Under the pieces are notes generated by a model that was not told the DNA's origin, ran no database searches, and saw nothing but the letters and a program-made list of their open reading frames with translations. Positions 2,083 through 38,746 of a stretch of 39,375 bases of DNA are shown piece after piece (position 1 is the stretch's first letter; every line of letters starts with the position of its first letter). Source of the stretch: Acidimicrobiia bacterium (GTDB taxonomy: Bacteria; Acidobacteriota; Vicinamibacteria; Vicinamibacterales; UBA2999); assembly GCA_016871255.1 (NCBI GenBank), contig VFZH01000019.1, positions 1-39,375 on the forward strand. The letters are read 5' to 3'. Position numbers and translations under genes: made by a program.

Positions 2083-3660
2083 CTACCCCGCCGGTTCGAG
2101 CGTCGTCGTGAACAGGCTCGCGCCGGAGACGTCCTTCAGCGTGACGGTCATCGCCGCCGTAGCGCCGTCGATGTCCACCTGCCCGAAGAACTGGTAGCCG
2201 GCGGACGGCGGCGCGTTCGGAATCGGGGACGCGCGCTGAAAGACGACCTGCGGCCCGAACGTGTCGTCGAGCGCGCTGGGGCCGAAGCTGCCGGCATGGA
2301 GCGGGCCGGACGCGAACTCCCAGAACGGATCGAAGCCGGTGAACCGCGCCCGCGCGGGATCGTAGCGGTGCGCGGCGGTGTAGTGGACGTCGCCGGTGAT
2401 CCAGACGACGTTCCGGACGCCGTGCTCCCGGATGGACCGCAGCAGGTGCGCGATTTCCAGCTCGCGGCCGAGCGGCGGCCCGCCGTCTGCGTTGGCCACG
2501 GCCTCGAACGTGGCGGGACGCCCGGACGAGTCGAGTTCGTCGGGTACGACGAGGCCGATCGGCATGTCCGAGGCGATCACCTTCCAGACCGCTGACGACT
2601 GCGCGAGCGTCTCCTCCAGCCATGTGAGCTGCGCCGCTCCGAGAAAGGCCGTGGCCGGACCGCCGATGGCCTGGCGGTTCGCGCTGTTGGGCCCGCGGTA
2701 GCTCCGCGCATCGAGCGCGAACACGTCCAGGAGCGGCCCGTAGGGGACGTGCCGGTAGATGCGCTCTTCCTCCGACGGCTCGTACCGCAGCGGCGCGTAG
2801 TCGAGAAACGCGCGGCGCGCCCGTTCGGCCAGCACGGCCACGCGCTTCTCCGTGTAACGGGCGTCGGCTGACAGATCCTTCGCGTCGGACCAGTTGTTGA
2901 CCACCTCGTGGTCGTCCCACAACCAGACCTGCGGCACCTCCGCCGAGAAGCGCTGCACGTGTGCGTCGAGCAGGTTGTAGGCGTAGCGGCCGCGGAACTG
3001 GGCGAGCGACTCGGCGACGACCGCCACGTCGGCGGTCACCAGGCTCCTCCACACGCTGCCGTCGGCCAGCTCCATGCGCTCGGCAATCGGCGCATCCGCG
3101 TAGATCGTGTCCCCGCAGTGGACGAAGAAGTCGGGATCGACCTGCCGCATCGCCTCGTACGTGCGCATCCCGCCCCGTTCGGGATCGATCCCGTAGCCCT
3201 GACCGGCGGTGTCGGCGGACCACACGAAGCGGACGTTGCGGCGGCCGGCCGGGGCCGTACGGAAACGACCGTCCACCGGCGCGGATCGCGCGCGGCCGCT
3301 CTCCAGGTCCTCGAATCGCACGCGCAGGAGCACCTCGCGATCCGGCGCGAGGCCGGAGAGGTCGAGTCGCGCGACGAAGCCGTTCTCCTGCGTCGCCACC
3401 CCTCCTCGCACCGTGACCGCCTCACGGAACGACGCGTTCGAGGCGTGTTCGACGACGAGGCGTGCGGGGCGATCGGCGCGGCCCCAGACGATCGCGCTGT
3501 CGGCGCGAACGTCGCCAATCTGGATCCCGGACGGCAGTCCGGGCCGCATGCGCCCGGAGGTGACGATCGCAGGACCCCGTCGACACGACGCGAGCGTCTG
3601 GAGAGCGACGGAGGACGCCGCTGCGGTCTTCAGGAATCGGCGCCGTGACACCGGGCTCAC
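2083..3660 (-). CDS. PhoD-family alkaline phosphatase / phosphodiesterase, Tat-exported
   Basis: 525-residue metallophosphatase. The N-terminus has a twin-arginine signal (SRRRFLKTA, residues 5-13) followed by ASSVALQTLASC, so it may be a Tat-exported lipoprotein. An N-terminal beta-sandwich (about 40-135) precedes the catalytic domain, the usual PhoD layout. Metal-binding signatures are HCGDTIYADAP (181-191), WLWDDHEVVNNW (246-257), DARSYRG and a late WITGDVHYTAAH. The length is close to the family norm. Members hydrolyse phosphomonoesters or phosphodiesters in the periplasm with Fe/Ca centres; that is family knowledge and the substrate here is not known. The gene stands alone, divergent from the exported DUF3943-like gene and convergent with the small membrane protein gene. 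Confidence 0.9.
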   Translation of the reverse strand: MSPVSRRRFLKTAAASSVALQTLASCRRGPAIVTSGRMRPGLPSGIQIGDVRADSAIVWGRADRPARLVVEHASNASFREAVTVRGGVATQENGFVARLDLSGLAPDREVLLRVRFEDLESGRARSAPVDGRFRTAPAGRRNVRFVWSADTAGQGYGIDPERGGMRTYEAMRQVDPDFFVHCGDTIYADAPIAERMELADGSVWRSLVTADVAVVAESLAQFRGRYAYNLLDAHVQRFSAEVPQVWLWDDHEVVNNWSDAKDLSADARYTEKRVAVLAERARRAFLDYAPLRYEPSEEERIYRHVPYGPLLDVFALDARSYRGPNSANRQAIGGPATAFLGAAQLTWLEETLAQSSAVWKVIASDMPIGLVVPDELDSSGRPATFEAVANADGGPPLGRELEIAHLLRSIREHGVRNVVWITGDVHYTAAHRYDPARARFTGFDPFWEFASGPLHAGSFGPSALDDTFGPQVVFQRASPIPNAPPSAGYQFFGQVDIDGATAAMTVTLKDVSGASLFTTTLEPAG

Positions 3661-11665: not shown

Positions 11666-11824
11666 GGGCCCTGGCGGGAATAAGGTTGCCGACTCTCGGG
11701 CGGCGAGGCGCCCGGATCGCCAGGCGCGAGGAGGGAGCAGGCCGGGTGCCTGTGACCGTCGAGCAACGCCGCGAGGCGGGATGCATCGTCGGCCGAGATG
11801 GCAACCTTATTCCCGCCAGGGCCC
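11666..11824. repeat. 159-bp MITE-like element, copy 1
   Basis: The element begins GGGCCCTGGCGGGAATAAGG and ends in the exact inverse; the terminal inverted repeats are 25 bp and perfect (11666-11690 and 11800-11824). TAA stands directly on both sides (11663-11665, the receptor 1 stop codon, and 11825-11827), which looks like a 3-bp target duplication. An internal CGGGCG / CGCCCG hairpin (about 11696-11713) lies inside. A second copy of identical length and orientation is at 38588-38746, differing at eight positions. No transposase is encoded. As RNA it would fold into one long hairpin just after the stop codon. Confidence 0.85.
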
Positions 11825-11878: not shown

Positions 11879-13792
11879 ATGGCGACAGGCGTGGAAAGGC
11901 TGGTTGGTGCGGTGGCGGTTGCCGGGCTGGGGGGGGCGTTCCTCTTCGGCCCTGCCGACCCGGGTACACGACGTCCGGTCGCTCCCGCGCCCGTCGCGAC
12001 GCTGTCGGCTGCGCCCACTGCGCAGGACGTTCCGGCCAATCCCGAGCGGAACGCGTACTTCGGAGACGTGCACGTGCATTCGAGCTGGTCGCTCGACGCG
12101 TACACGCTTGGCGGCAACCGCGACGAACCGGACGTGGCGTACCGCTTCGGCCGCGGCGACACGATCCGCAGGCCGGACGGTTCCATCCTTGGCCCACTGG
12201 CCGTCCCGCTGGACTTCATGGCGGTCACGGATCACGACGCGTGGCTCGGAGAAGTGCATTCCTGCGTGGACACCAGCGACCAGGCCTACGACACGCCGAC
12301 CTGCAGGCAGGTGCGCGCGATGGAGGGGTTCGGTCAGCTGTACGGCAGGTTCGGGCGGCAGGGGCTCCGGCCGCCCGATATCTGCGGTGAAAGCGGGTAC
12401 GGCCCCGGCAACCGGTGCCTGGAGCGCGCCGGACACCTGTGGCACGAGATCCAGAAGAACGCGGACGCGTTCTACGAGCCGGGCACGTTCACGACGTTTG
12501 CAGCCTACGAGTGGACCGGTCAGCCCCCGGGCATCGGCCATCTGCACCGCAACGTGATCTTCCGCGGCGAAGCCGTTCCCGAGTGGGGAGGGTCGGCCGT
12601 CGAGATGCAGAACCGCCCTGAACGGCTCTGGGAGTGGCTGGAGAAGGCGTGTGTCAGCCCCTGCCAGGTGATGTCGATTCCGCACAACACGAACTGGAGC
12701 GAGGGCGTGTCCATGGCGCCGAACAACTCCGACGGCTCGCCGTTCACGGAGGAAATCCTGAAGCGGCGCGCCTGGGCGGAGCCGCTCGTCGAGGTCTTTC
12801 AGATCAAGGGCGGGTCGGAGTGCTATACGGGTCTCGGTACCACCGATGAGGAATGTGGCTTCGAGAAGTACTACGAGATCTGCAAGCCCGGGCAGGGATC
12901 CAATTGTGCCTACGCCTCCGACTACGTCCGGAACGCGTTGAAGAGCGGCCTCCGCATCGAGGAGGAGTTCGGCGTCAACCCGTTCAAGTACGGGCTGATT
13001 GCCAGCCCCGACGGTCACAAGAGCACACCCGGCGACGTCGATGAAGATGCGTTCGTCACCGAGTCCCCGAAGTTCGCGCACGACGGGTCTCTGGCGGGCC
13101 CCTACGGCGAACGGCAGGACGGCGGCAACATCACGAACCCCGGCGGCCTCGTCGGCGTGTGGGCCGATCGCAACACGCGGGAGTCGATCTTCGACGCGAT
13201 GAAGCGGAAGGAAACGTTCGCGACCAGCGGGCCGAGAATTCACGTGCGGTTCTTCGGCGGGTGGGCCTACCCGAACGACCTCCACAGCCGGAGCGACGTG
13301 GTGGGCCAGGCAGACGCCGGTGGCGTGCCGATGGGCGGAGACCTGCCGTCCCGGCCCCCGACCGCTGGCGCACCGCGGTTCGTCGTCTGGGCGACGAAGG
13401 ACGCCCGTTCCGCGAACCTGCAGAAGGTGCAGATCGTCAAGGGCTGGTCGTCTGGAGGTGAGACCCACGAGCGTGTCTACGACGTCGCCTGTGCCGATGG
13501 CCTGACGCCTGATCCGAACACACACACGTGCACCGACAACGGCGCGAGAGTGGATGTGACCACCTGCAACATCACGGCAGGCAAGGGGGCGGCGCAGCTG
13601 AGCACGACGTGGACCGATCCCGAGTTCTCGCCGGCCGATCGCGCGTTCTACTACGTGCGCGTGCTCGAGAACCCCACCTGCCGGTGGACGACGCATCGGG
13701 CGCTCGCTCGCAAGTCACCCATCCCGGAGCCATCGACGATCAAGGAGCGGGCCTGGAGCTCGCCGATCTGGTACACCCCGCCTTCACAGTAG
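11879..13792 (+). CDS. Exported DUF3604 (PHP-like metallohydrolase) protein
   Basis: 637-residue exported protein. A short basic start and hydrophobic segment (LVGAVAVAGLGGAFLFG, about 8-24) are followed by a Pro/Ala linker. The DUF3604 domain then opens with FGDVHVHSSWSLDA (61-74), whose HxH is the first metal signature of the PHP superfamily, and continues with FMAVTDHDAWLGE. Further His/Asp segments include SIPHNTNWSEG and GLIASPDGHKS. Two Cys pairs in the C-terminal part suit a periplasmic location. The ATG at 11879 has GGAGG four bases before; an upstream in-frame ATG at 11834 has no such site. It is the first gene of an operon with parvulin and three HupE-like genes (7 bp gap, then overlaps). 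The reaction is unknown; a metal-dependent phosphoesterase or hydrolase is inferred from fold. Confidence 0.88.
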   Translation: MATGVERLVGAVAVAGLGGAFLFGPADPGTRRPVAPAPVATLSAAPTAQDVPANPERNAYFGDVHVHSSWSLDAYTLGGNRDEPDVAYRFGRGDTIRRPDGSILGPLAVPLDFMAVTDHDAWLGEVHSCVDTSDQAYDTPTCRQVRAMEGFGQLYGRFGRQGLRPPDICGESGYGPGNRCLERAGHLWHEIQKNADAFYEPGTFTTFAAYEWTGQPPGIGHLHRNVIFRGEAVPEWGGSAVEMQNRPERLWEWLEKACVSPCQVMSIPHNTNWSEGVSMAPNNSDGSPFTEEILKRRAWAEPLVEVFQIKGGSECYTGLGTTDEECGFEKYYEICKPGQGSNCAYASDYVRNALKSGLRIEEEFGVNPFKYGLIASPDGHKSTPGDVDEDAFVTESPKFAHDGSLAGPYGERQDGGNITNPGGLVGVWADRNTRESIFDAMKRKETFATSGPRIHVRFFGGWAYPNDLHSRSDVVGQADAGGVPMGGDLPSRPPTAGAPRFVVWATKDARSANLQKVQIVKGWSSGGETHERVYDVACADGLTPDPNTHTCTDNGARVDVTTCNITAGKGAAQLSTTWTDPEFSPADRAFYYVRVLENPTCRWTTHRALARKSPIPEPSTIKERAWSSPIWYTPPSQ

Positions 13793-13799
13793 GAGACGC

Positions 13800-14669
13800 G
13801 TGCCAGTGCCACGCCTTGTACGTGCTGCGCTCCGGGAGCCGCTGGTTCATTTCCTGGTAGCCGGCGCGTTCATCCTTGCCGCCAGCGCCTGGCTGAACCC
13901 GTCCGAGGATCGCCACAACCGCATTCACGTCACCGCGGACCGGATCCAGCAGCTGCACGAGACCTGGTCGACGCAGTGGGGCGAGCCGCCCGACGAGGCG
14001 CAGTTGCGCACCCTCGTGGAGGACTTCATCCGCGAAGAGGTGCTGTACCGGGAGGCCCTGGCCTCCGGCCTCGACCAGAACGACTCGATCATTCGACGAC
14101 GCCTGGCCCAGAAGATCGAGTTCCTGGCCCAGGGGGTCACGATGACCGAACCGACGGACGAGGAACTCCGGGCGTTCTTCGATCAGCACCGCGCGCGCTA
14201 CGAGATTCCGGCCGGCGTGTCGTTCGAGCACGTCTTCTTTGGAGATGCGAATGGCAAGGGCAGCGGACGGGGCGCTTCTGTTGGCGAGATCCTGGCGGGA
14301 CTGCGTTCGGGGGGCGTGCCGGCGGCCAAGGTGAGAGGCCTGGGGGACCCCTTCATGCTGCAGCTCGAGTATCCGCTCCAGACACAGACGGAGGTGCGGA
14401 ACCTTTTCGGCGTTGAGTTCGCGGAGCGCCTGTTCACCCTCCCGGTCGGCGAATGGGCCGGGCCTGTCCGGTCCGCGTACGGCCAGCACCTCGTCCGGGT
14501 GCGTGAGTCGGAAGACCGGCGTCTTCCGGACCTGCATGAAGTGCGCGATCAGGTTGCCACCGAGCTGAAGAGGCAGCGCGCGCAGGCGCTGGTCGACACG
14601 TATTACGAGCGTCTTCGCGAGAGGTACGTCGTCGAGATCGACGAAGACCTTCTGACGGAGCGGCCGTGA
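13800..14669 (+). CDS. Membrane-anchored parvulin-type peptidyl-prolyl isomerase
   Basis: 289 residues from a GTG start with AGGAG four bases upstream, 7 bp after the DUF3604 stop. A single N-terminal helix (VHFLVAGAFILAASAWL, residues 16-32) anchors it to the inner membrane. A SurA-like helical region follows (EEVLYREALASGLDQND), and a parvulin domain occupies about residues 135-245 (YEIPAGVSFEHVFF ... VGEWAGPVRSAYGQHLVRVRES). Members assist folding of exported proteins. Its place between an exported enzyme gene and HupE genes suggests it is dedicated to products of this operon. The GTGA overlap (14666-14669) with the next gene implies translational coupling. Confidence 0.85.
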   Translation: MPVPRLVRAALREPLVHFLVAGAFILAASAWLNPSEDRHNRIHVTADRIQQLHETWSTQWGEPPDEAQLRTLVEDFIREEVLYREALASGLDQNDSIIRRRLAQKIEFLAQGVTMTEPTDEELRAFFDQHRARYEIPAGVSFEHVFFGDANGKGSGRGASVGEILAGLRSGGVPAAKVRGLGDPFMLQLEYPLQTQTEVRNLFGVEFAERLFTLPVGEWAGPVRSAYGQHLVRVRESEDRRLPDLHEVRDQVATELKRQRAQALVDTYYERLRERYVVEIDEDLLTERP

Positions 14670-15694
14670 GGCGGTCTCCGGCGCGCGTTGGGACGACACT
14701 TGGCATCGCGGCCGTGGCTGCCTGCCTGGTGACACCGGTCGTCGCACATGCCCATACGACGCTACCTGCCTATCTCGAGTTGAACGAGCTTACGGCAGGG
14801 GCGTTCGACCTGGCCTGGAAGGTGCCGGCCGTCGAGGGGCCACCTCCGCCGATCTACCCCGAGTTCCCGCGGCACTGTGCGCTGGCCGCGCCTCTCTCCG
14901 AGACGCAGGCGGCAGGTTCCATCCTGATGCGTGGCGTGCTCCAGTGTGGCGCAGAGGGTCTCGCCGGGCAGTCGATCGAGATTGCGGGGCTCCGCACCAC
15001 GATCATGGAGACCGTCGTGCGGCTGGCGTTTCTGGATGGCACGAGCGCGATGCGCGTGCTCAGGCCGTCCGAGCCGTCGTTCGTGGTGACGCAGGCCGCG
15101 CCGGGTGCAGACAGCGTGGACGCGCGCGGGCACTTCCGGCTCGGCGTCGATCACATCCTGTCCGGCATCGACCACCTGCTCTTCGTGTTCGGTCTGCTAC
15201 TACTCGTGCGCGGCACCGGCCGGTTGCTGAAGGCGATCACGTCCTTCACCGTGGCGCACAGCATCACGCTTGGACTGGCCGCGCTCGGGGTGGTCCGGCT
15301 CGCGCCGGCACCGATCGAGGCGGTCATCGCGCTGAGCATCGTGTTCCTGGCGGTCGAGGTCGCGCAGGAACGGCGGGGTGTCGCGGGCCTGAGCCAGCGG
15401 AAGCCGTGGCTGGTGGCGTTTGCGTTCGGCCTGCTGCACGGCTTCGGCTTCGCCGGCACGTTGTCGCAGATCGGCCTTCCGGCTGGCGACATCCCGATGG
15501 CGCTGCTGTACTTCAACGTGGGCGTCGAGGCCGGTCAGGTCGGCTTCATCGTCGTGTGCCTGGCCGTGATGGCCTCGCTGCGCACCCTCGATCTTCGGCC
15601 ACCCGCGTGGGCACACGCCGTGCCGGCCTACGTGATCGGTCCCTTGGCGTCCTACTGGTTCCTCGAGCGATGCGTATCCGCCTTCACGTCCTGA
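14666..15694 (+). CDS. HupE/UreJ-like membrane protein 1 with periplasmic N-terminal domain
   Basis: 342 residues from a GTG start that overlaps the parvulin stop by four bases. A signal peptide (GIAAVAACLVTPVVAHAH) and a periplasmic domain of about 120 residues precede the membrane part. That part starts with LGVDHILSGIDHLLFVFGLLLL and continues with FTVAHSITLGLAALG and FGLLHGFGFAGTL. The DH, AHS and HGFGFAG motifs identify the HupE/UreJ_2 family, proposed metal (Ni/Co) permease or accessory proteins. About six to seven membrane helices are visible. It is the largest of three HupE-like genes in tandem. Confidence 0.88.
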   Translation: MRRSPARVGTTLGIAAVAACLVTPVVAHAHTTLPAYLELNELTAGAFDLAWKVPAVEGPPPPIYPEFPRHCALAAPLSETQAAGSILMRGVLQCGAEGLAGQSIEIAGLRTTIMETVVRLAFLDGTSAMRVLRPSEPSFVVTQAAPGADSVDARGHFRLGVDHILSGIDHLLFVFGLLLLVRGTGRLLKAITSFTVAHSITLGLAALGVVRLAPAPIEAVIALSIVFLAVEVAQERRGVAGLSQRKPWLVAFAFGLLHGFGFAGTLSQIGLPAGDIPMALLYFNVGVEAGQVGFIVVCLAVMASLRTLDLRPPAWAHAVPAYVIGPLASYWFLERCVSAFTS

Positions 15695-16290
15695 CGGTCT
15701 TCGCCCGCCTGGTGCGGGCGATCCTTTCACTGGCACTGGTGCTGCTGCCTTCCGCAGCCGACGCCCACACCGGCGCGGAGGTCACGGTCGGATTGTGGAG
15801 CGGCATGTTGCACCCGCTGACCGGGCTCGATCACACGATGGCGATGGTGGCGGTTGGCATCTGGGGCGCGCAGCTGGGCCGCCCGGCGATCTGGCTCCTG
15901 CCCGTGACGTTCCCGCTGGTGATGGCCCTTGGCGGCGTGGTGGGTATCCGTCAGGTCCCGTTCCCGTTCGTCGAGGTCGGGATCGCGGCGTCGGCTGTCG
16001 TGCTGGGTGCCATGGTGCTGGGCGCGGTCAGGGCCTCACTTCCGGTCGCGACGGCGGTCGTCGGGTTCTTCGCCGTCTGCCATGGGTACGCCCACGGCGC
16101 GGAGCTGCCGCACGCGGCGAATCCGTTCGCGTATGGCGTCGGATTCGTCCTTGTGACCGGGCTCCTGCACGTGTGCGGCATCGCGATCGGCCTGCTGAAG
16201 CGATGGCCCGCAGGTGCGCTGGCGATGCGGGCGTGCGGGGCCGTCATCGGCGTCGCAGGGCTGTATCTGCTTGGAGGACACCTCGGGTGA
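15670..16290 (+). CDS. HupE/UreJ-like membrane protein 2 (classical, His motifs present)
   Basis: 206 residues starting at an ATG inside the last 25 bases of the previous gene. A signal-like segment (ILSLALVLLPSAADAH) is followed by the HupE signature MLHPLTGLDHTMAMVAVGIWGAQLG and, later, CHGYAHGAELP, LLHVCGIAIGLL and a final helix. The histidines of LDH and HGYAHG are the presumed metal ligands of the family. It has six or so helices with the expected HupE length of about 200 residues. The stop overlaps the next start as GTGA. HupE proteins move nickel or cobalt for hydrogenase or urease; neither enzyme is encoded here, so the metal user is probably another envelope protein. Confidence 0.88.
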   Translation: MRIRLHVLTVFARLVRAILSLALVLLPSAADAHTGAEVTVGLWSGMLHPLTGLDHTMAMVAVGIWGAQLGRPAIWLLPVTFPLVMALGGVVGIRQVPFPFVEVGIAASAVVLGAMVLGAVRASLPVATAVVGFFAVCHGYAHGAELPHAANPFAYGVGFVLVTGLLHVCGIAIGLLKRWPAGALAMRACGAVIGVAGLYLLGGHLG

Positions 16291-16883
16291 CGGGTGGGTG
16301 GCGCCCGTGCGCGGCGGTGGCCGGGGGGGTTCTGGTCCCGTCGGCGGCCCACGCCCACCCGATGCCCGGCGTGAGCGATTTCTACGCCGGCATGCTCCAC
16401 CCGATCGTCACGGTCGAGTTCGTCATCCCCCTTGTCGCGCTTGGTCTGCTGGCGGGGCAGCAGGGACGCGGGACTGCACTCGCCTTGCTGCTCGCTGTGC
16501 CCATGGCGCTCGTCGTCGGCGCAGCAGCCGGATTGGGGTGGTCGGCACCATTTCCGGTCCCGTGGCTGAACAACCTGTCCATTGTCATGTGCGGCATCGC
16601 GCTGGCGGGTGCGTGGCTCTTGCCGCGACCGGTCGCGGTGGCGATCGGCGTCCTTCCGGCGCTCACGGTTGGATGGCTCAACGGTGCCGAGATCGACGAG
16701 TCGATGTCGGCGTTCCGGTTCGTCGGGGGCGTGGCGCTCGTCGGATTCATCGTGATTGTGTGCGGTGTGGGAGGCCTCCGGCGCCTCGAGGTCTTCTGGA
16801 AGGACATGGCGGTTCGGGTGCTCGGGAGCTGGATCGCGGCCGTGGGCATCCTCGTGCTCGGTCTCGGCTCAGGCCCATCCTAG
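16287..16883 (+). CDS. HupE/UreJ-like membrane protein 3 (histidine-poor paralog)
   Basis: 198 residues from a GTG start overlapping the previous stop, with GGAGG nine bases upstream. It aligns along its length with paralog 2: HPMPGVSDFYAGMLHP, then PFPVPWLNNLS against PFPFVEVGIAAS, and GWLNGAEID against HGYAHGAELP. The key residues differ: LDH of paralog 2 is TVEF here, and the HGYAHG histidines are replaced (VGWLNG), while the Glu stays. About six helices are kept and the frame is intact. It probably no longer binds metal the same way; a structural or heteromeric partner of paralog 2 is one reading. Confidence 0.8.
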   Translation: MTGGWRPCAAVAGGVLVPSAAHAHPMPGVSDFYAGMLHPIVTVEFVIPLVALGLLAGQQGRGTALALLLAVPMALVVGAAAGLGWSAPFPVPWLNNLSIVMCGIALAGAWLLPRPVAVAIGVLPALTVGWLNGAEIDESMSAFRFVGGVALVGFIVIVCGVGGLRRLEVFWKDMAVRVLGSWIAAVGILVLGLGSGPS

Positions 16884-16959
16884 GAGACATCCCGGTGCCC
16901 GTCGTGTCGCCTTGTCCGTCTGGTGGTTCCTGCTGGTGTCGATCGTGCCGGCGGCGGCG

Positions 16960-17199
16960 CTCCAGGCCTTTCTGCCGCATGTCGAGGTGCTCCCGGTCCC
17001 CGACGAGGCCGCCGGCGACTACGCCCGAATCCGCGCTGATCTGAAGCGTCAGGGCCGGATCACTGGCGCGAACGACCCCTTCATTGCCGCCCACGCTCGC
17101 AGCCTGGGGGTGCGGCTCGTCACGAACAACGCCGCGGAGTTCGGCTGCATTACGGGGCTGAAGGTGGAGAACTGGACCGTTCCCGTCCGCACCCGTTGA
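16960..17199 (+). pseudogene. VapC-type PIN-domain toxin, C-terminal remnant
   Basis: The frame ending at 17199 carries a typical VapC C-terminal half: a conserved helix region (DEAAGDYARIRADLKRQG), GANDPFIAAHARSLG with the catalytic Asp, VTNNAAEF and a GLKVENW ending. The N-terminal half, with the first catalytic Asp of the PIN domain, is absent; upstream the frame runs into unrelated sequence (VALSVWWFLLVSIVPAAA) and the end of the HupE 3 gene. No VapB-like antitoxin is nearby. It is taken as a decayed toxin gene. Confidence 0.75.
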
Positions 17200-20540: not shown

Positions 20541-22033
20541 ACTGTCCGGAATTTCGTGTGTGAAGCGGGTTGACGGCGTCGTTCTCTTTCTTCTGTCTTC
20601 TTCTCCGCAAGCGATGAGGCGTGTGGGCGCTGTGGGAAACCGCGTTCTGTGCGGTTTTCCAAGTCGCTGTGGGCGCGTTCTGTGCGTCCATAGTGACGGC
20701 AGCGTCCATGCGCTCCGGGCATTTTACGTCTGGGGCGCGAGAAAGCGATCTTCGTACAGGATCGCGAAATGACGCATCGCGGTTTTCCCGTGAATGGCGC
20801 CGCGCGCCCATTTCGCCGTGATGTGGCGGAGCGCGAGCCCAATCAGCTTGGTGGCGGCTTCGTCGCTGGGAAAATGGCCGCGCGTCTTGATGATCTTGCG
20901 CAGCTGCGCGTGGACACTCTCCAGCGCGTTGGTCGTGTCGATCACCCGCCGCACGTCGGGGGAAACGCCAAGAACGGAATCACGTGCGTCCAGGCGCGCC
21001 GCCACGACGCGACGACGGTCGGAAACGTCGTGCCCCAAGGGCCGCGTGCAACGTCGTCGAGCGCGGCGGCAGCGGCCTCCGCGTTCGGCGCGGTATCAAT
21101 TGGGCGAAGGGCCTTCGCCAACGGCTTCCGCTCTTTCCAATTGGCGACGTCGAGCGTGTGCCGAATCAGGTGCACGATGCAGGTCTGGCGCGTCGTCGCC
21201 GGATACACCGCCGCGAGCGCCTCGCTCATCCCCTGCAGGCCATCGGTCACGGCGATGAGGATGTCGCGGCACCCGCGCGTTTTCAGATCGCTGACGACCG
21301 TCAGCCAGCATGTCGCGCCTTCGGTCTGCTCGATCCACAGGCCGAGGATGTCGCGGCTCCCGTCCGGCAGGACCGCCAGCGCCAGATAGAGGGCCTGGCT
21401 GCGCACCGTCGCCTCGTCGCGAAGCTTCACGCGCAGCGCATCGAAGAACACGACGGGATACATCGCCTCGAGCGGCCGGCTTTGCCACGCGGTGACTTCC
21501 GCGACGATGCCGTCCGTCACCGTGCTGATCAGATCGGGCGACACCTCCACGCCATACATGTCCGCGAGGACACCTTGGATTTCGCGCACCGTCATCCCAC
21601 GCGCGTAGAGCGCCAGAATCTTGTCGTCGAAGCCCGTGAAGCGGCGCTCGTGTGTCGCGATGAGCCGTGGCTCAACGCTCCCGTCGCGATCGCGCGGCAC
21701 GTCGATCGCGAGCGGACCGTCGTCGGTCAGCACCGTCTTGCCGCCCGTCCCGTTCCGGTGATTCGTCGTGTCGCCCGGTTTCGTGCCGCCCGGCGGGTAG
21801 CCCACATGGTGCGTGAGCTCGCCGCCCAGCGCGCGCTCGATAATCGCCTTCTTGAAGCGACGCACCGCGGCGTCGAGCTCCTCAGGCGAGATTGGCCCTT
21901 GTCGCACGAATTGGTCGAGGATTTCCGAGAGGATCGGCGCCAGCGGGGCGTCAGGCATTAAGGCTCTCCGTTCTGCGGGGCATAGAGTCTCCTCATGGTA
22001 TGCCCCACACACGAAATTCCTGATACCCTCCCC
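20535..22033 (-). mobile_element. IS256-family insertion sequence, degenerate
   Basis: The ends carry an inverted repeat with the identical 15-base core GGAATTTCGTGTGTG (20548-20562; inverse at 22006-22020) and weaker similarity outward to G-rich tips. The size is about 1.5 kb, near the family norm. It contains one transposase gene, frameshifted, and a 160-bp non-coding part near the left end with a hairpin (20634-20660, GGGAAACCGC / GCGGTTTTCC around GTTCTGT). An 8-9 bp target duplication could not be assigned because both flanks are simple repeats. Borders are approximate. Confidence 0.7.
20724..21958 (-). pseudogene. IS256-family (mutator-type) transposase, frameshifted
   Basis: The reading frame from the Met at 21958 (MPDAPLAPILSEILDQ) gives a normal IS256 N-terminal and catalytic region: FFDALRVKLRDE with the first Asp, AVTDGLQGMSEAL with the second Asp, and CIVHLIRHTLD. 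It stops at 20942 after VIPFLAFPPTCGG. The continuation is in another frame: SPDVRRVIDTTNALESVHAQLRKIIKTRG with the catalytic Glu, ending FAILYEDRFLAP. The break lies in a run of five C (near 20960 on the + strand, GGGGG) where six would restore the frame. Without frameshifting the enzyme lacks its DDE glutamate. A sequencing error in the homopolymer cannot be excluded. Confidence 0.85.
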
Positions 22034-38587: not shown

Positions 38588-38746
38588 GGGCCCTGGCCGG
38601 AATAGGGTTGCCGACTCCCGGGCGGCGAGGCGCCCGGATCGCTAGGCGCGAGGAGAGAGCAGGCCGGGTGCCTGTGACCGACGAGCAACGCCGCGAGGCG
38701 GGATGCATCGTGGGCCGAGATGGCAACCTTATTCCGGCCAGGGCCC
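38588..38746. repeat. 159-bp MITE-like element, copy 2
   Basis: Same length and orientation as copy 1 (11666-11824), with TAA on both sides (38585-38587, the ankyrin stop codon, and 38747-38749). Eight substitutions separate the copies. In the terminal stem one G-C pair of copy 1 is C-G here (changed on both sides) and one A-T pair is G-T, so pairing is kept. It lies 57 bp before the SemiSWEET start. Confidence 0.85.

What the first reader, a model, noticed from the sequence alone, without database searches (positions are those of the whole stretch)
11879..16883. Operon of PHP-like enzyme, parvulin and three HupE-like proteins: a possible envelope metalloenzyme module
Seen: DUF3604 protein, membrane-anchored parvulin and three HupE/UreJ-like genes with gaps or overlaps of 7, -4, -25 and -4 bases. 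Known: PHP-fold proteins use metals via HxH motifs, parvulins fold exported proteins, HupE moves Ni/Co. No hydrogenase or urease is present. Inference: the HupE proteins deliver metal to the exported DUF3604 enzyme, whose folding is helped by the parvulin.
Basis: partly seen in the sequence, partly recalled or inferred. Interest (0 to 1): 0.6.

Follow-up and report, generated by a model that had tools for sequence, protein, structure and literature searches.

The report
Maturation module for exported PHP-like enzyme
A secreted enzyme of unknown function (DUF3604) is almost never found without its own membrane-bound protein-folding helper and its own metal-handling membrane protein, across three large bacterial groups, so the three very probably work as one unit, although what the enzyme does and which metal it uses are still unknown.

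Summary
The five genes and their spacing are as described. Genes 1-3 (DUF3604, parvulin, HupE_UreJ_2) form a recurrent module. In 661 genomes (217 Acidobacteriota, 232 Gammaproteobacteria, 212 Alphaproteobacteria) the module-type parvulin and DUF3604 occur together in 50, parvulin alone in 3, DUF3604 alone in 7, neither in 601 (phi 0.90). The parvulin is a distinct subfamily, nearly always next to a distinct HupE_UreJ_2 subfamily. When a DUF3604 gene lacks the parvulin beside it, the genome usually carries one elsewhere (41 of 46), which suggests action in trans. DUF3604 is predicted to be a PHP-fold enzyme (Z 17 to solved PHP proteins) with nine invariant ligand-type residues in PHP order; many members look like Sec lipoproteins. 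The HupE_UreJ_2 partner keeps its membrane metal motifs and a near-invariant His after the signal peptide, like the recently described 'anglerase' metal-catching proteins. The two extra HupE genes recur only in some Acidobacteriota, and the last has lost its metal motifs. The link is strong. Folding plus metal supply is the best mechanism, but metal delivery is unproven and the import direction expected of HupE is a problem for it. I found no published description.

The parts
11879..13792 (+). DUF3604 protein, exported, predicted PHP-fold metallohydrolase with C-terminal beta-sandwich
   Evidence: PF12228 629.9 bits; model pLDDT 89.6, Z 17.2 to 3e38; invariant H65 H67 D73 H119 E211 H223 H269 D378 H380
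13800..14669 (+). module-type parvulin with N-terminal membrane anchor
   Evidence: PF13145 2e-15; conserved subfamily; hydrophobic segment 14-32; co-occurrence
14666..15694 (+). module-type HupE_UreJ_2 protein with periplasmic N-terminal region starting with His after the signal peptide
   Evidence: PF13795 6e-47; invariant H163 D169 H170 H198 H258, near-invariant A29-H30
15670..16290 (+). canonical HupE, metal motifs intact; accessory found in some Acidobacteriota
   Evidence: PF04955 4e-55; orthologs in L021, L025, L124, L125, L127
16287..16883 (+). degenerate HupE that has lost the metal motifs; accessory found in some Acidobacteriota
   Evidence: PF04955 1e-16; motif loss shared by orthologs

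Best explanation
This is a copy of a widespread functional module: an exported PHP-fold metallohydrolase (DUF3604) plus a dedicated pair that matures it. The pair is a membrane-tethered parvulin that helps the enzyme fold after Sec export, and a HupE_UreJ_2 protein that catches transition metal with an N-terminal-His periplasmic domain and either hands it to the enzyme in the periplasm or keeps up the local metal supply. The pair can serve several DUF3604 paralogs in trans. In this genome the pair is joined by a second HupE and a degenerate HupE, probably metal-related accessories. Shown: gene content, recurrence, subfamily specificity, predicted PHP fold, invariant ligand-type residues, His after the signal peptide. 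Inferred: foldase action on DUF3604, identity and direction of the metal, substrate.
For: Co-occurrence in 661 genomes: both 50, parvulin only 3, DUF3604 only 7, neither 601, phi 0.90; by Acidobacteriota genus 9 shared, 1 and 2 unshared of 130, p 2e-11. Parvulin lies next to module-type HUP2 in nearly all loci. 41 of 46 genomes whose sampled DUF3604 lacks an adjacent parvulin carry the parvulin elsewhere, and six genomes with DUF3604 and parvulin but no adjacent HUP2 carry a module-type HUP2 elsewhere. Of ten genomes with DUF3604 but no module parvulin, none has a module-type HUP2. DUF3604 predicted fold is PHP with nine invariant ligand-type residues. 67 of 128 DUF3604 have a lipobox by a simple rule. 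HupE/UreJ-2 proteins with N-terminal His bind Cu and Ni in vitro (PMC12537917).
Against: No experiment ties the parvulin or HUP2 to DUF3604. HupE proteins are described as importers, which does not by itself metallate an exported enzyme. About a dozen DUF3604 genomes lack the pair (G266, G271, G276, G283, G304, G577, G313 and others), some perhaps through incomplete assembly, so the enzyme may work without it. One small genome (G680) has DUF3604 and a divergent parvulin but no HUP2. Distance correlation of DUF3604 with the pair is only moderate (0.35 and 0.28, against 0.63 within the pair), as expected for action in trans but also for loose linkage.
Confidence: 0.55

Rival explanations
1. Catabolic uptake module: DUF3604 cuts an outside substrate, HUP2 imports metal into the cytoplasm for downstream enzymes, and the parvulin folds envelope proteins such as TonB receptors. 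There is no metal hand-off to DUF3604.
For: HupE family members are importers (PMC12537917); TonB receptors flank the window module and recur, with sulfatases, near other DUF3604 loci.
Against: No single catabolic gene is as constant as the parvulin and HUP2, and generic parvulins and HUP2 proteins exist in the same genomes, so a dedicated pair would be unneeded.
Confidence: 0.25
2. The parvulin is a DUF3604-specific foldase, while HUP2 is not a metal protein here but a membrane scaffold or a transporter of the reaction product.
For: The parvulin is nearly exclusive to DUF3604 genomes.
Against: HUP2 keeps every His and Asp of the membrane motif and the His after the signal peptide.
Confidence: 0.15
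3. Neighbours by chance or shared mobility, without functional link.
For: Present on plasmids and patchy: found in only one of 36 genomes of the window's own family.
Against: Co-occurrence holds across three phylum- or class-level groups, in several gene orders, and when unlinked.
Confidence: 0.03

Closest known systems
PHP-family metal-dependent hydrolases (3e38 BVU_3505, 2anu TM0559; CehA/McbA family NF038032)
   Same: Predicted PHP fold followed by a beta-sandwich; ligand-type residues HxH ... DH ... E ... H ... H ... DxH in order
   Different: No detectable sequence relation to any solved chain; far below the CehA/McbA cut-off (17 against 80 bits); exported; has dedicated partner genes
Anglerase HupE/UreJ-2 proteins (PMC12537917)
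   Same: PF13795 permease domain behind a periplasmic domain that starts with His after the signal peptide
   Different: Distinct subfamily tied to a parvulin and DUF3604; the paper's text mentions no parvulin or peptidyl-prolyl isomerase, and the passages I read do not mention DUF3604
HupE of hydrogenase and UreJ of urease clusters
   Same: HX5DH and HGxAHGxE motifs in gene 4; metal permease family
   Different: No hydrogenase or urease gene among the window genes scanned; the partner is an exported PHP-fold enzyme
Anchored or periplasmic parvulin foldases (PrsA, PpiD, SurA, HP_0175)
   Same: N-terminal anchor and a parvulin domain with conserved GPxxSxxGxHLV
   Different: Subfamily nearly restricted to genomes with DUF3604

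Membership tests
DUF3604 (PF12228) | profile match over full length above curated cut-off | tested here: met
   629.9 bits against 20.4, positions 1-591 of 591
PHP superfamily | PHP fold | tested here: met
   Predicted model pLDDT 89.6; Z 17.2, 16.8, 14.0, 13.5 to four PHP entries, next row 6.2; plain Foldseek gave no significant hit
PHP superfamily | four-motif metal ligand set | tested here: met
   H65, H67, D73, H119, E211, H223, H269, D378, H380 invariant in 78 sequences; correspondence to a solved trinuclear site made by order only, from memory
PHP superfamily | metal-dependent hydrolysis | not testable with these tools
   needs biochemistry
CehA/McbA metallohydrolases (NF038032) | score above curated cut-off | tested here: not met
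   17 bits against 80
HupE_UreJ_2 anglerase proteins | PF13795 domain plus His directly after the signal peptide | tested here: met
   A29-H30 nearly invariant; the cleavage site was not predicted with a dedicated program
HupE_UreJ_2 anglerase proteins | binds Cu or Ni | not testable with these tools
   shown only for other members (PMC12537917)
HupE (PF04955), gene 5 | HX5DH and HGxAHGxE motifs | tested here: not met
   it still matches the Pfam profile
parvulin (PF13145) | profile match above cut-off | tested here: met
   58 bits against 27
parvulin (PF13145) | prolyl isomerase activity | not testable with these tools
   H230 is invariant, the upstream His is not

The most novel reading that the evidence does not exclude
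The parvulin and HUP2 form a dedicated periplasmic metallation machine: the anglerase-like domain of HUP2 hands metal directly to a folding, parvulin-held DUF3604 enzyme on the outer face of the inner membrane, a route for loading Sec-exported metalloenzymes after export that uses a HupE-family protein outside its importer role.
Probability: 0.25. Interest if true: 0.75.

Novelty: new variant of a known kind. Interest (0 to 1): 0.55.

Why it matters
DUF3604 turns up in marine gammaproteobacteria, alphaproteobacteria and some acidobacteria, often in several copies per genome, and has no assigned function that I could find. Tying it to a specific foldase and a specific metal protein gives a direct way to make active enzyme (co-express the pair) and to test how an exported metalloenzyme gets its metal, which is poorly understood for Sec substrates.

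Tried and rejected
Chance clustering: rejected by co-occurrence even when unlinked. Generic HupE_UreJ_2 association: rejected; 59 of 217 Acidobacteriota genomes have PF13795, and in the 31 generic loci fetched (210 bits or less on the module profile) no module parvulin lay nearby. Filing DUF3604 under CehA/McbA: below cut-off. Sequence search for a solved relative of DUF3604: none. Single-sequence structure prediction: useless, pLDDT 33. Plain Foldseek: no significant match; only the realignment gave PHP. Tat export: only 7 of 128 have a Tat-like motif by a crude rule. Literature: one incidental mention of DUF3604, none of PF12228, no relevant paper joining parvulin and HupE. Rfam on the upstream palindrome: no match.

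Full report
The window lies in an Acidobacteriota genome (the closest related loci are Vicinamibacteria and Terriglobia). Pfam names them DUF3604, Rotamase_2, HupE_UreJ_2, HupE_UreJ and a weaker HupE_UreJ. 'HUP2' below means the HupE_UreJ_2 protein.

Recurrence. Plasmids of Sinorhizobium, Pseudoalteromonas and Roseibium show DUF3604, peptidylprolyl isomerase and HupE/UreJ in a row. Of 91 DUF3604-bearing loci, 35 have both the parvulin and HUP2 nearby, in several gene orders: after, before, or divergent from DUF3604. The parvulin and HUP2 usually overlap or abut, so they are the tight unit.

Specificity. A profile of the module parvulin gives 277 bits or more for full-length Acidobacteriota members and 87 or less for other hits. 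The module HUP2 mostly scores 300-440 on its own profile, generic HUP2 210 or less. Generic HUP2 is common (59 of 217 Acidobacteriota genomes have PF13795); in the 31 generic loci I fetched, none lies near the module parvulin. Divergent module parvulins in some Gammaproteobacteria and Alphaproteobacteria score lower (about 100-230 bits), but those I fetched mostly sit next to DUF3604 or module-type HUP2.

Genome profiles. Acidobacteriota: both 18, parvulin only 2, DUF3604 only 2, of 217. Gammaproteobacteria: 10, 0, 2 of 232. Alphaproteobacteria: 22, 1, 3 of 212. Together phi is 0.90. Ten of the 18 Acidobacteriota cases are one genus; counted by genus it is 9 shared, 1 and 2 unshared of 130, p 2e-11. 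Relatedness above genus is not corrected for. Several of the few exceptions are fragments or contig ends (G082, G179, G641, G705, G691, G073).

Action in trans. Where the sampled DUF3604 lacks a parvulin beside it, 41 of 46 genomes carry the parvulin elsewhere. In one acidobacterial genus the pair sits apart from the four to six DUF3604 matches. Six genomes with DUF3604 and parvulin but no adjacent HUP2 have a module-type HUP2 elsewhere, and ten genomes without the parvulin also lack the module HUP2; G384 has only a fragment, and G680 is an exception (divergent parvulin, no HUP2).

Enzyme. The AlphaFold2 model from 78 sequences is confident (pLDDT 89.6). Realignment puts four PHP entries on top (Z 17.2 to 13.5) with the next row at 6.2; plain Foldseek alone missed this. 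Nine ligand-type residues are invariant in the PHP order. Matching them to the trinuclear site of E. coli YcdX is from memory and by order only. About half of the family (67 of 128) has a lipobox by a crude rule; the window copy has only a weakly hydrophobic N-terminus.

Pair. The parvulin has one N-terminal hydrophobic segment, a conserved N-terminal EPLVHF stretch and a conserved parvulin C-terminal motif. HUP2 keeps H163, D169, H170, H198 and H258 invariant and a near-invariant His after the signal peptide. This is the layout of 'anglerase' HupE/UreJ-2 proteins, which bind Cu and Ni in vitro and were proposed to feed metal into the permease (PMC12537917).

Genes 4 and 5. Relatives follow HUP2 in five other Acidobacteriota loci. 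Gene 4 keeps the HupE motifs. Gene 5 has lost them in the window and in the four orthologs aligned. Why a degenerate HupE is kept is unexplained.

Mechanism. The functional link is close to certain. Folding help by the parvulin follows from its family and its near-exclusivity but is inferred. Metal supply by HUP2 is inferred, and the known import direction argues against simple delivery; a periplasmic hand-off would resolve it but is untested. The substrate is unknown: sulfatases, TonB receptors and catabolic enzymes are frequent but not constant neighbours.

Novelty. I found no description of this module in the held literature, which lacks most subscription journals and all preprints. The parts are known families; the dedicated combination is new to my knowledge.

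Noticed in passing
window 11667-11823 (second copy 38589-38745): A 157-bp palindromic element with 24-bp inverted-repeat ends, about 48 copies in the genome, nearly all of fixed length (97 end matches, control 0), 95-98% alike among copies in the same orientation, with a TWA target duplication at many copies; MITE-like. It sits at the stop codon of the upstream receptor gene, just before DUF3604, and folds far better than shuffles.
   Followed up: partly
window 16756-17199: C-terminal part of a PIN-domain (VapC-like) gene directly after the module, probably a remnant.
   Followed up: no
window 20724-22012, minus strand: Mutator-family (IS256-like) transposase that looks split between two frames.
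   Followed up: no
window 16287-16883 and loci L021, L025, L124, L127: A degenerate HupE paralog without metal motifs is conserved next to an intact HupE in several Acidobacteriota; its role is unexplained.
   Followed up: partly
window 2086-3660, minus strand: PhoD-like phosphatase gene near the module.
   Followed up: no
L024 2159-14100: The closest relative of the window module carries a tandem run of five DUF3604 genes around one parvulin-HUP2 pair.
   Followed up: no
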